DNA of 64,000 nt from Streptococcus oralis (lineage in GTDB: Bacteria; Bacillota; Bacilli; Lactobacillales; Streptococcaceae), in assembly GCF_024399415.1 (NCBI RefSeq), contig NZ_CP029257.1, forward strand, positions 1,635,501-1,699,500, in the 5' to 3' direction. Below the pieces are notes generated by a model. That model did no database searches and had not been told where the DNA came from. It saw nothing but the letters and a program-made list of their open reading frames with translations. Shown here piece by piece: positions 32,701 through 36,157 of the stretch; the stretch's first letter is position 1, and the number at the start of each line of letters is the position of its first letter. A program made the translations under genes and the position numbers.

Positions 32701-35700
32701 ACTTAGTCATGACATCATGGGCAAATAAGTTGGTTACATAGCCATTGTAGTCACTTCTTCCTTGCCAGCCTTCAAAATCTTTCATGCTGTAGCCACCTAG
32801 AAGTGGGTAGTTGGCTGCACCACCGTAACTTCTGTAGTCCCCAACCCAAGAATCTTTTTGGTGGTTGCGGATAAAGCGTGTGATGGCACTGTTGATACCT
32901 TTATTAGTGTAGCCACCATAGGTCAAGTCAGCTGCCCAGTGTTGGAAGGTAGAATCGTATTCACCACCATGGCCCCACTCAATCGCAAAGCGCCAGCCTT
33001 GTTTGTTAATTTCTTTAGCAAGAACGTGGGTAGCCCAGGCACCGTTATCACCTGATTGGCCATTGCCCCAAACATCCACATAGATAAAGTCGAGACCATC
33101 ACCAAGTTTTTTCTTCAAGTCTTCCCAGCGAGCTAAGCGTCCATGCGCCAAGTCATAAGCAGCATCAATGTTGATACCTTGATCTAGCCAGTTCCATCCG
33201 TAGCTGTAGCTACCATCTGGATTCTTACGAAGAATATTTTCATTAAAGTATTTAGACTCAGGATAAGTCTCAGAAGCGTTCACGTGGATACCTAGATGAG
33301 CTCCATATTTCTTCGCTTTTTCGATCAAGGTCTTGAAGTCTTCGACACCACCAATACGTTTACCAATATCAGCATAGTTCAAGTGACCAGAGTCGTGACC
33401 TTCACTACCATATCCTTTAAGGAGAACACCTTGCCCAAGACCATCGGTGTGGAGATTGATTTTCTTGATACCATCCAAGGTCATTAGGAATGGGTTTTGT
33501 GCTTGTGAACCAAAGTTCATCGCGATACGGTAAGCAGTGATATCCTTAACTTTTTCCCAACCTTGAGGGTTGTTCATGATGCTACGATAAGCAATGGCAC
33601 CATCTTGCCAGTCGACTTTGTTGTCAGCATTGGCGTCTTCGGTGATAACAACCTTGGCACTTGGAAGTTCCTTGGTGTATTCTGGGAAAACAATGCCCTT
33701 ATAAGCTTTTTCCCATTGCCATTCAGAACTTTGGATTCCCACATAGTTTGTATTTCCAACAGTTTGTTTGAATGCTGTCAAACGAGTCCAGTCATTCGAA
33801 CCACCACCGTAGCTGTTTTGAGAGTTACTCCAAACACCTGCAGCAAGCTTATCTGTAGAAACAAATCCATACATGTAACCCTTAGCCAGATCCTTCATTG
33901 GATTGGTTACAGCAATATGATCATCTCCACTGATATGAGTGTTGTTTGACATGGTTGCCCCGTCAAACTTAGCTCCAGTTTGGTCGCTTGAAACTGACAC
34001 AAGTGAGTTTCCTAAGAAATTGATAGAGGAGAGAAGTTTTCTTTCATCATCAATCTTCTGACCTGGAGTAACTTGATTGTGGTTGACAATCTTGGTCACA
34101 TCAAAATGTAATTGATTGTCCACAACTTGCAAGCGTACTGTCATATCTGCATTGATGAAATTCTTCTCGTCACGAAGTTTCATCAAGTACTCTGCAGTAG
34201 TATCATTGATCTTCTTATAAGTGACTTCAGGTGTAATTTCGCGATTGTTTACCAAGATTTTCTTAAGTTGTTGAACTTGTCCTGGCAAAGTATGCCCATT
34301 CAAAGTGTATTCTTTCACACGAGGAAAGGCTTGGTCAATTACCGCTTTCAAAACTGCTGACTGGATAGTGTCATAAGTCACCTTGCTATCGTCAACAACC
34401 GGACCTGTTTCTTTCTGGGCAGGAGTATCATCCGCTTTTACGCCTTCTTGATTGTCTGTTTTAACGCTGACAACCGTACGCTCATTGCCATAGGAACCAG
34501 CTTTTAGGACGATTTTCTTCTCATTTTTGAGAGTTTCATTAACAGCTGCTGGCAAAGTGACCGTATCAAAGAGTTTCTCATCATTATTCGTTGCATTGAG
34601 TTGTCCATCTGACTTGAGGTTAATTGATAGGTGGTTAATTGATCCTGTCTCAGGCGCTGCTACACGTCCCCCCTTATACCATGTGCTATCGGTTGGAGAT
34701 TTATACTCCCAGAACCAGCCGTCCTTGTCATAACCAACAAAAACATTGTTCTTGGTATCTTTAAATTTCAAGAAGACACCAAAGCGTGATTTGCCTTTTT
34801 CAGAATCATCTTTGAAGGTTAAATCAACCGTCGCATTTCCATTAGCGTCAACTGTCAATCCTTGTTTTTCAAACAAGGCTGGTTTATCGCCATTGTCGTT
34901 CTGTGCAGTTGAGGACAATTGATTGTAGCGGACACCTTTTTCTTCACGAACCGTAACTGTTCCTTGTTGCTCTTTATTCGCTACTGTTTGCCATTCAGGA
35001 GTTACTGTCTTAGGTGTTTCAGGTTTAGTAGCTGCAGGTTTATCCTCTTTTGGTTTTTCTTCAGCCGGTTTTTCTTTCTCTTCCAAGTCTGCTGGTTTTA
35101 CACTTGAAATTCCCTGTATGTGGTCTTGGATCCATTTTAGTTGAGCTGGTGAGAAGAGAATACCGCCGCTCCGTTTTCCAACTACACCATTTTGGTGCAC
35201 ACCGACCAGTTTGCCTTCTGTATCAAAGATACCGCCGCCACTAGCGCCTGGTTTTCCTCCTTGGTAACCAATCCCTTGGACACCTTCTCCGTATGGCTCC
35301 GCAAAATCAACTGTAGTATTGACAATCGGATTCAATTTCCCTTCTGGATAACCAAAGACATGGAGCTTATCTCCGATTTTCTTAACTACTGGCTTTTTGG
35401 TTACTTCAACAGGCGTATTTTCTAGAACTGTACGCAATCTCACTAGGGCCAAATCATTTTTGAAGCCCTTCAGGTAGCCTTCACGATCCCAATGAATGAT
35501 ATCTTTCTTACTAAACTTGACATCTGGCAATCCTGGATAAGAGATGCTATAGATATCTCCATCCCCTTGGTCATTATCCACAACCTTACGGATATTGCCG
35601 TCTTGGCTGTCTTTGATAAAGTTATGAGAAACCGTCAAGACAAGGTCTTTAGCAACGACAATACCGCTGCCTTCTCCTGATGGCGTCTTGATCTTAACAG

Positions 35701-36157
35701 TTGCGCCGTAGTTTAATTCCCCGTTAGTCGTTTTAGCTACATCTTCTGGAACAAGTTTCCCTGTATCTTGGGCCAATTGATCCTTTTCAACTTCACGCCC
35801 ATTGTCTTCAGCTTTCTCCAACTTATCTTCTAATTCTTTTGGCAGATTGCTTGGCTTTTCAGACTTTTCTTTTTCTTGAGCCAATAACTCTTCTTCTGTT
35901 TGAGGGCCTTCAGTAGTTTCAGCTGAACCAGGATTCTGAGCGGCAGCTTCCTTGTCAAAATCGTGCCCCTCATCACTAGCCTTCTTATCCAAATCAGCCA
36001 GTTCACTCGGCAAATTATCTGTTGAACCAACTCTTGCTTGATCAGCCAATACTGGGCTAGCTGCGAAGAAAGTCGCTCCAATCATCACCGAAGCTACTCC
36101 AAGCGTAAACTTACGAATACTGAACTTACAGCGTTTTTCAAAAAATCGTTTATCCAT
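29732..36157 (-). CDS. LPXTG-anchored endo-alpha-N-acetylgalactosaminidase (GH101) with N-terminal trypsin-like protease domain
   Basis: 2141 residues. A YSIRK-like signal (FSIRKFTLGVASVMIG) is cut near 39, followed by an acidic spacer. A chymotrypsin/V8-like serine protease domain (about 145-350) has triad residues H178 (LTVSHNF), D235 (KNDLALV) and S306 (GASGGG). After a Lys/Pro/Glu linker come a concanavalin-like module (about 390-580) and the GH101 core, with nucleophile D1028 in IYVDVWGN and acid/base E1060 in AIEWGHGG. The 32-residue spacing equals D764/E796 of the pneumococcal enzyme. Further carbohydrate-binding modules (one F5/8C near 1785-1900), four 17-residue repeats and LPATG follow. 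GH101 releases the core-1 Gal-beta-1,3-GalNAc disaccharide from mucin O-glycans. Position next to pbp1A matches pneumococcal SP_0368. The protease fusion is not something I recall for that protein. Confidence 0.92.
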   Translation of the reverse strand: MDKRFFEKRCKFSIRKFTLGVASVMIGATFFAASPVLADQARVGSTDNLPSELADLDKKASDEGHDFDKEAAAQNPGSAETTEGPQTEEELLAQEKEKSEKPSNLPKELEDKLEKAEDNGREVEKDQLAQDTGKLVPEDVAKTTNGELNYGATVKIKTPSGEGSGIVVAKDLVLTVSHNFIKDSQDGNIRKVVDNDQGDGDIYSISYPGLPDVKFSKKDIIHWDREGYLKGFKNDLALVRLRTVLENTPVEVTKKPVVKKIGDKLHVFGYPEGKLNPIVNTTVDFAEPYGEGVQGIGYQGGKPGASGGGIFDTEGKLVGVHQNGVVGKRSGGILFSPAQLKWIQDHIQGISSVKPADLEEKEKPAEEKPKEDKPAATKPETPKTVTPEWQTVANKEQQGTVTVREEKGVRYNQLSSTAQNDNGDKPALFEKQGLTVDANGNATVDLTFKDDSEKGKSRFGVFLKFKDTKNNVFVGYDKDGWFWEYKSPTDSTWYKGGRVAAPETGSINHLSINLKSDGQLNATNNDEKLFDTVTLPAAVNETLKNEKKIVLKAGSYGNERTVVSVKTDNQEGVKADDTPAQKETGPVVDDSKVTYDTIQSAVLKAVIDQAFPRVKEYTLNGHTLPGQVQQLKKILVNNREITPEVTYKKINDTTAEYLMKLRDEKNFINADMTVRLQVVDNQLHFDVTKIVNHNQVTPGQKIDDERKLLSSINFLGNSLVSVSSDQTGAKFDGATMSNNTHISGDDHIAVTNPMKDLAKGYMYGFVSTDKLAAGVWSNSQNSYGGGSNDWTRLTAFKQTVGNTNYVGIQSSEWQWEKAYKGIVFPEYTKELPSAKVVITEDANADNKVDWQDGAIAYRSIMNNPQGWEKVKDITAYRIAMNFGSQAQNPFLMTLDGIKKINLHTDGLGQGVLLKGYGSEGHDSGHLNYADIGKRIGGVEDFKTLIEKAKKYGAHLGIHVNASETYPESKYFNENILRKNPDGSYSYGWNWLDQGINIDAAYDLAHGRLARWEDLKKKLGDGLDFIYVDVWGNGQSGDNGAWATHVLAKEINKQGWRFAIEWGHGGEYDSTFQHWAADLTYGGYTNKGINSAITRFIRNHQKDSWVGDYRSYGGAANYPLLGGYSMKDFEGWQGRSDYNGYVTNLFAHDVMTKYFQHFTVSKWENGTPVTMTDNGSTYKWTPEMKVELVDAAGNKVVVTRKSNDVNSPQYRERTVTLNGRVIQDGSAYLTPWNWDANGKKLPTDKEKMYYFNTQAGATTWTLPSDWANSKVYLYKLTDQGKTEEQELTVKDGKITLDLLANQPYVLYRSKQTNPEMSWSEGMHIYDQGFNSGTLKHWTISGDASKAEIVKSQGANDMLRIQGNKSKVSLTQKLTGLKPNTKYAVYVGVDNRSNAKASITVNTGEKEVTTYTNKSLALNYIKAYAHNNRRDNATVDNTSYFQNMYAFFTTGSDVSNVTLTLSREAGDEATYFDEIRTFENNSSMYGENHDTGKGTFKQDFENVAQGIFPFVVGGVEGVEDNRTHLSEKHDPYTQRGWNGKKVDDVIEGNWSLKTNGLVSRRNLVYQTIPQNFRFEAGKTYRVTFEYEAGSDNTYAFVVGKGEFQSGRRGSQASNLEMHELPNTWTDSKKAKKATFLVTGAETGDTWVGIYSTGNASNTRGDSGGNANFRGYNDFMMDNLHIEEITLTGKMLTENALKNYLPTVAMTNYTKESMDALKEAVFNLSQADDDISVEEARAEIAKIEALKNALVQKKTALVAEDFESLDAPAQPGEGLENAFDGNVSSLWHTSWSGGDVGKPATMVLKEPTEITGLRYVPRASDSNGNLRDVKLAVTDESGKEHTFTVTDWPNNNKPKDIDFGKTIKAKKIVLTGTKTYGDGGDKYQSAAELIFTRPQVAETPLDLSGYEAALAKAQKLTDKENQEEVAGVQASMKYATDNHLLTERMVEFFADYLNQLQDKAAKPDAPTSSKGEEQPPVLEVPEYTGPYGTAGEEAAVHDLPEFKGGVNAAEAAVHDLAEFKGGVNAVQALVNELPEYKGGANAVLAAANEVPEYRGGVNAVEALVNEKPAYTGVLATAGDQAAPTVEKPEYPLTPSPVADTKTPGAKDEEKLPATGEHSSEVALFLASVSIALSAAVLATKRKED
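29966..30169 (-). repeat. Four tandem 51-bp repeats in the stalk of the GH101 protein
   Basis: Four 17-residue units of the type PEFKGGVNAAEAAVHDL / PEYRGGVNAVEALVNEK, exactly 51 bp each. They are related to the core of the repeats in the neighbouring glycosidase and lie between the lectin modules and the sortase signal. Confidence 0.9.

What the first reader, a model, noticed from the sequence alone, without database searches (positions are those of the whole stretch)
34950..36157. Trypsin-like serine protease domain fused in front of a GH101 mucin O-glycosidase
Residues about 145-350 of the GH101 protein form a chymotrypsin/V8-type protease with an apparently complete triad (H178, D235, S306 in GASGGG). 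The GH101 catalytic pair D1028/E1060 is also intact. One wall-anchored polypeptide would therefore both cut protein and release core-1 O-glycans, which fits mucin or IgA1-type substrates where O-glycans shield the peptide. I do not recall this domain in the pneumococcal counterpart at the same locus. That contrast, and whether the domain is active rather than only a mucin-binding module, is inference.
Basis: partly seen in the sequence, partly recalled or inferred. Interest (0 to 1): 0.75.

Follow-up and report, generated by a model that had tools for sequence, protein, structure and literature searches.

The report
Protease domain on mucin glycan enzyme
A surface enzyme of mouth streptococci that strips sugars from mucin-type proteins also carries an intact-looking protein-cutting domain; this pairing is already in print, its use is unknown, and the same domain turns up on several other surface enzymes.

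Summary

The fusion is not new. NCBI's SpGH101 model spans it, and a 2025 paper states that SpGH101 and ZmpA of commensal strains have an extra peptidase S1B domain (PMC12211801). It is common: 65 of 94 GH101-bearing Streptococcus genomes have a TLD just upstream, 62 of them unbroken and in a frame of the same length. A pneumococcus-like genome appears to have lost it.

Not found in print in ten searches: the same module also heads GH29 fucosidases (49 genomes, including this one), GH33 sialidases (three genomes), and proteins whose only enzyme domains recognised are two TLDs.

Triad and S1-site His are kept and dN/dS is low (0.049), yet the nearest tested relative showed no activity and no role in IgA1 cleavage. 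Best reading: a conditional, zymogen-like protease beside an O-glycanase. Activity is unproven.

The parts
29732..36157 (-). Gene of the 2141-aa TLD-GH101 surface protein
   Evidence: ORF; NF040533 endo_SpGH101 4211.6 bits, cut-off 2900, residues 1-1957 in one stretch
36038..36157 (-). YSIRK signal region, residues 1-40
   Evidence: TIGR01168 1-40, PF04650 7-31
35756..36037 (-). Variable N-terminus, residues 41-134; a motif of about 31 aa occurs twice (residues 48-78 and 104-134, by eye)
   Evidence: median dN/dS 0.138 for residues 41-139
35711..35755 (-). Conserved lead segment LVPEDVAKTTNGELN, residues 135-149
   Evidence: nearly the same in the 13 rows printed
35105..35710 (-). Trypsin-like (S1 fold) domain, residues 150-351
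   Evidence: PF13365 163-320; profile limits; model and fold match
35624..35626 (-). Codon of H178 (triad)
35453..35455 (-). Codon of D235 (triad)
35240..35242 (-). Codon of S306 (triad, GASGGG)
35195..35197 (-). Codon of H321, 15 residues after the Ser, where V8-type enzymes have their S1 His (hallmark recalled)
   Evidence: invariant in 24 of 24 TLDs and 41 of 41 GH101-TLD rows
34994..35104 (-). Linker rich in E, K and P, residues 352-388
   Evidence: sequence; median dN/dS 0.180
35865..35872 (-). Left copy of AAAGAAAA (codons 96-98) at the edge of the stretch missing from G157
35070..35077 (-). Right copy of AAAGAAAA (codons 361-363)
34448..34993 (-). GH101_N, residues 389-570
   Evidence: PF17995
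33608..34366 (-). Galactose-mutarotase-like domain, residues 598-850
   Evidence: PF18080
32735..33607 (-). GH101 catalytic domain, residues 851-1141, with D1028 (33074-33076) and E1060 (32978-32980)
   Evidence: PF12905 E 8.2e-122; residues, kept in 41 of 41 rows
31154..31747 (-). GalBD-like domain, residues 1471-1668
   Evidence: PF17974
30503..30853 (-). F5/8 type C domain, residues 1769-1885
   Evidence: PF00754
29963..30217 (-). SIALI-17 repeat region (limits approximate)
   Evidence: NF043031, three stretches
29735..29836 (-). LPXTG anchor (LPATG at residue 2108)
   Evidence: PF00746, TIGR01167

Best explanation
A wall-anchored surface protein with two enzyme domains. GH101 frees core-1 disaccharides from Ser/Thr of mucin-type glycoproteins (family knowledge). 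In front of it, on an E/K/P-rich linker, sits an S1B-like serine-protease module that has kept its catalytic parts under selection. The module is most likely zymogen-like as made, is switched on by N-terminal trimming or by its substrate, and then nicks peptide near sites that the glycosidase has bared. The same module was shuffled onto other glycan-trimming surface enzymes (GH29, GH33) and onto M26 ZmpA. Shown: fold, residues, conservation, selection, partners. Inferred: activation, proteolysis in vivo, cooperation with the glycosidase.
For: Fold and kinship to the Gemella TLD and glutamyl endopeptidases. H, D, S and the S1-type His invariant in 24 of 24 TLDs from all partner classes and, in 41 GH101-TLD rows, H and D in 40 (one gap, broken gene L122), S and H321 in 41. 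Median dN/dS 0.049 against 0.138 for the N-terminus and 0.180 for the linker. Proteins whose only enzyme domains recognised by Pfam are two TLDs, with LPXTG (L126) or choline-binding repeats (L065), suggest the TLD does its own work. Partners GH101, GH29, GH33 and M26 mostly act on mucosal glycoproteins (family knowledge). Zymogen idea: GhTrp S1 site filled by loop 2, as its authors propose; in my model the matching stretch (residues 320-329) has mean pLDDT 75 while most other blocks inside the domain exceed 85.
Against: No activity found for the Gemella TLD on a Glu ester, chromogenic peptides or a peptide library, and no effect on its partner enzyme's IgA1 cleavage. Low dN/dS fits a binding domain too. 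Gly replaces the S1 Thr of V8 at Ser-5 (G301; the V8 residue is recalled), so specificity is unclear. The TLD can be dispensed with: G157 lacks it, and in G122, G130 and G209 it is broken or in a separate frame. No substrate or cleavage site is known.
Confidence: 0.5

Rival explanations
1. The TLD is a retired protease kept as a binding or spacer module, for instance for mucin or another host glycoprotein.
For: No activity found in the Gemella relative and an S1 site filled by loop 2; its authors say a lost protease function cannot be ruled out. Low dN/dS would fit.
Against: Triad and S1 His invariant across all partner classes sampled (24 of 24), which a mere scaffold would not need.
Confidence: 0.25
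2. The TLD acts on the streptococcal surface itself: it trims or sheds its own or neighbouring wall proteins, controlling how much enzyme is anchored.
For: It sits between signal peptide and catalytic core on a flexible linker; a conserved lead segment (135-149) could be a processing site.
Against: No processing data. The linker is the fastest-changing part measured (dN/dS 0.180), so no conserved cleavage site shows there. The Gemella TLD did not interact with its own metalloprotease part by NMR.
Confidence: 0.13
3. The TLD is a highly selective protease for one host protein unrelated to O-glycan removal; its glycosidase partners only bring it to the mucosal surface.
For: Sequence matches to exfoliative toxins at E 3.3e-5 to 0.017, which the Gemella authors cite as enzymes whose target was found late. 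Inactivity on general substrates fits.
Against: The recurrence of glycan-trimming partners is not expected if the partner were immaterial, though it is not excluded.
Confidence: 0.12

Closest known systems
SpGH101 of commensal streptococci with an extra peptidase S1B domain (PMC12211801, Fig. 2 legend and section 12)
   Same: Same protein family and same extra domain type compared with TIGR4 SP_0368.
   Different: Seen there in seven study strains and described only as domain architecture in the section and passages I read; function, residues, loss in the pneumococcus and the GH29/GH33 partners are not treated in them.
Trypsin-like domain of Gemella haemolysans M26 IgA1 protease (GhTrp, PDB 9ect)
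   Different: Partner is an M26 metalloprotease; loop 2 is one residue shorter in the alignment; no activity found.
V8-type glutamyl endopeptidases (1p3c, 1wcz, 1qy6, Esp)
   Different: 17-22% identity in those rows; Gly instead of Thr at Ser-5 (recalled comparison); they are free-standing secreted enzymes.
Pneumococcal SpGH101 (SP_0368/spr0328, 1767 aa)
   Same: GH101 core about 95% identical in the pneumococcus-like G157; same remaining domain order.
   Different: No TLD.
CbpG, a trypsin-like domain on choline-binding repeats
   Same: A surface serine protease reported to degrade fibronectin and casein (PMC8592123 passages); similar layout to the two-TLD choline-binding proteins found here.
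   Different: One domain only; sequence kinship to this TLD not tested.

Membership tests
SpGH101 family endo-alpha-N-acetylgalactosaminidase (NF040533) | Score above NCBI's cut-off (2900) | tested here: met
   4211.6 bits, residues 1-1957 against model 1-1961 of 1962
GH101 | Catalytic domain with Asp/Glu pair | tested here: met
   PF12905 E 8.2e-122; D1028 and E1060 present, 41 of 41 rows; their catalytic role is recalled
GH101 | Release of core-1 disaccharide | not testable with these tools
   needs an assay
Trypsin-like domain family of M26 proteases (GhTrp) | Sequence and fold match to 9ect | tested here: met
Peptidase family S1 (chymotrypsin fold) | Double-barrel S1 fold | tested here: met
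Peptidase family S1 (chymotrypsin fold) | His-Asp-Ser triad in that order | tested here: met
   H178, D235, S306; invariant in 24 of 24; geometry not measured
V8-type glutamyl endopeptidase (S1B) | S1 His 15 residues after the Ser (recalled) | tested here: met
   H321
V8-type glutamyl endopeptidase (S1B) | S1 Thr/Ser at Ser-5 (recalled) | tested here: not met
   G301 in the window; Gly also in the M26 and second tandem TLDs
V8-type glutamyl endopeptidase (S1B) | Processed free N-terminus that completes the S1 site | not testable with these tools
   about 110 residues precede the domain after the signal region; processing unknown
V8-type glutamyl endopeptidase (S1B) | Cleavage after Glu | not testable with these tools
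   needs an assay; the Gemella relative did not cut a Glu ester

The most novel reading that the evidence does not exclude
Mitis-group streptococci use one shuffled S1B protease head as a shared front piece for several surface glycan-stripping enzymes (GH101, GH29, GH33), for M26 ZmpA, and for two-headed proteins with no other enzyme found. Sugar removal and peptide cutting would thus be coupled on single wall-anchored chains: a modular mucinase system that the pneumococcus-like lineage has partly given up by a deletion in its GH101.
Probability: 0.33. Interest if true: 0.7.

Novelty: already known. Interest (0 to 1): 0.42.

Why it matters
The role of the TLD in M26 IgA1 proteases was left open by the groups that studied it. 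Its placement ahead of glycan-trimming enzymes says where to look: glycoproteins after O-glycan removal, not IgA1 alone. It also marks a clear structural difference between commensal and pneumococcal versions of a surface glycosidase that is developed as a glycomics tool (PMC12550630, seen in the listing only). If the module is active, these streptococci would hold single-chain enzymes that both deglycosylate and cut mucin-type proteins.

Tried and rejected
Novelty of the fusion: rejected after reading PMC12211801 section 12. Chance motif: rejected. One-off gene fusion or assembly error: rejected, since the one-frame fusion recurs in 62 unbroken cases of the genus search and in 39 named loci. 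The GH101-core tree has TLD rows in three places while the TLD tree has one, so exchange between the domains is likely and the history is not simple. Deletion by repeats: only an 8-bp exact repeat lies at the junction; a longer one (10 bp, residues 131 and 347) lies elsewhere in the same flanks, so the repeat mechanism is only suggestive. IgA1-cutting role: disfavoured by the homologue. Kinship to CbpG: not tested; no source name is given for any of the 29 proteins. Set aside: matches at about 1e-4 to 1e-19 outside the TLD family proper (many look like HtrA by frame length; not checked), and the 12 distant loci L146-L157. L122 (broken TLD) was left out of the dN/dS set. Searches gave nothing useful. 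Families absent from the VIA list are not excluded.
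Full report
What is there. The gene at 29732-36157 (minus strand) encodes 2141 residues. Pfam gives a YSIRK signal (7-31), Trypsin_2 (163-320, E 1e-11), GH101_N, a galactose-mutarotase-like domain, GH101 (851-1141, E 8.2e-122), the GH101 C-terminal, domain-5 and GalBD domains, F5/8C and an LPXTG anchor. NCBIfam adds three SIALI-17 stretches and the SpGH101 family model, which matches residues 1-1957 in one stretch.

Selection. Over 40 GH101-TLD genes (window plus 39 named loci) the median pairwise dN/dS was 0.049 for the TLD, 0.138 for the N-terminus, 0.180 for the linker, 0.057 for GH101_N, 0.038 for the mutarotase-like domain, 0.019 for catalytic GH101, 0.063 for GalBD and 0.056 for F5/8C (only pairs with dS between 0.05 and 1.5, and pairs are not independent). 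The TLD is held like the other functional domains, but this does not tell catalysis from binding.

Distribution. Of 284 genomes of the genus, 94 have GH101. In 65 of the 94 a TLD lies 1413-1767 bp away on the same contig, and in 63 the open frames have the same length. One of the 63 (G122) has its TLD split over two frames, leaving 62 unbroken; in G130 and G209 the TLD stands in a separate frame. 29 of 94 show no linked TLD; contig ends may hide some. A scan of named genomes gave 75 loci, 63 of them of this TLD family: 39 with TLD and GH101 in one frame (some cut by the locus or contig end), one broken (L122), one with TLD and GH101 apart (L123; core found), 15 with two TLDs and none of the four partner enzymes tested (several cut by contig ends), 2 with two TLDs and GH33, 3 with M26 and 2 with GH29. 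That scan used two motif patterns, so it undercounts distant classes. Record titles of the 39 include S. oralis, S. mitis, S. infantis, S. pseudopneumoniae, S. taonis and S. shenyangsis. The protein search reported 2342 database proteins for the domain; the 120 listed all carry the GH101 Pfam domain.

Other partners. The window's own genome has a second TLD, on a 2111-aa YSIRK protein with GH29 fucosidase, F5/8C, Calx-beta and G5 domains. Of 59 listed TLD hits of this class, 49 share a frame of equal length with GH29 at 784-853 bp, 9 had no GH29 row in the truncated list, and one (G172) lies in another frame than its GH29; 3 large-frame GH29 rows had no listed TLD. The 49 genomes all also have a GH101-linked TLD. 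Two TLDs precede a GH33 sialidase in G091, G108 and G200. Others carry two TLDs with LPXTG (L126), with choline-binding repeats (L065) or, in Gemella, with G5 (L129; contig end). M26 ZmpA proteins carry one. In a tree of 33 TLDs, GH101, M26, GH29 and the two GH33 sets each fall on one branch, while the two tandem sets need two changes each; the program warns that long branches meet, so deep joins are unsure.

Pneumococcus. It runs from TEEELLALEKEK straight into PAEEKPKEDKP, where the window has about 265 more residues including the TLD. The edges share an 8-bp repeat, AAAGAAAA, but a 10-bp repeat lies elsewhere in the same flanks, so the repeat is weak evidence. In the tree of 51 GH101 cores G157 lies inside a group of 36 rows, 35 with a TLD (branch 100/100); 4 changes of the label are needed in all. 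The solved chain 3ecq has only 59 residues before the part that matches window residue 360, so its construct has no TLD; construct limits alone could explain that. PMC5753484 gives 1767 aa for sp_0368/spr0328, with 25 sequences analysed (passages). Loss in that lineage is the simplest reading. G157's ZmpA does have a TLD.

What is in print. PMC12211801 (section 12 read in full, plus passages; [quoted passage not shown] its main text has no occurrence of fucosidase or sialidase. PMC9637739 (passages) and PMC11970125 (parts 1 and 2 of 3) report that the Gemella TLD is folded, shows no contact with its metalloprotease part by NMR, does not change IgA1 cleavage, does not cut a Glu ester or the peptide substrates tried, and has loop 2 in its S1 site; the authors propose a pro-enzyme and do not exclude a lost function. 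For GH29 and GH33 fusions I found nothing in ten searches, which cover open-licence PMC papers only and none of which named these fusions as its sole aim. Passages were also seen from PMC8592123, PMC6722419, PMC11861894, PMC7846122.

Mechanism. GH101 releases core-1 disaccharides (family knowledge). The TLD is tethered ahead of it by a linker rich in E, K and P. The conserved catalytic set, low dN/dS and proteins with TLDs as the only enzyme domains recognised favour a working protease; the inactivity of the Gemella domain favours a switch, perhaps trimming near the conserved lead segment 135-149. The glycan-trimming partners suggest that peptide near bared Ser/Thr is the target. The last two steps are inference.

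Verdict. Observation confirmed; the fusion is already known; its function is open; the wider pattern of partners is the useful addition.

Noticed in passing
window 21357-29621 (-): The gene 110 bp downstream encodes a 2754-aa YSIRK...LPETG protein with GH20 and GH84 catalytic domains, five F5/8C stretches and SIALI-17 repeats. No TLD was recognised in it.
   Followed up: partly
L197 (G019:C1:1470500-1489900): One open frame listed at 6585 aa holds sialidase, GH101 and GH29 domains. The fetched stretch has runs of N (385 X in the 5686 aa seen), so the single frame is unsure.
   Followed up: partly
L198 (G209:C5:129500-140500): One 2598-aa frame holds a TLD, GH29 and a sialidase-family domain; it has 128 X.
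   Followed up: partly
L113, L116, L117, L119, L120, L121: GH101 cores only about 72% identical to the window's while the TLD is as in their neighbours (68-69%): the domains seem to have been exchanged separately.
   Followed up: partly
L071, L072, L073, L076, L082: GH101 proteins without a TLD seem, by eye, to carry the GH101_N-like segment twice at the N-terminus.
   Followed up: no
L189 (G157:C1 near 106731-107081): A trypsin-like reading frame in two pieces in the pneumococcus-like genome; described only.
   Followed up: no
window 17033-62256: PBP1A, RNase P, polysaccharide-type genes (by eye) and two OppA-like genes surround GH101; from recall this resembles the pneumococcal capsule locus.
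   Followed up: no
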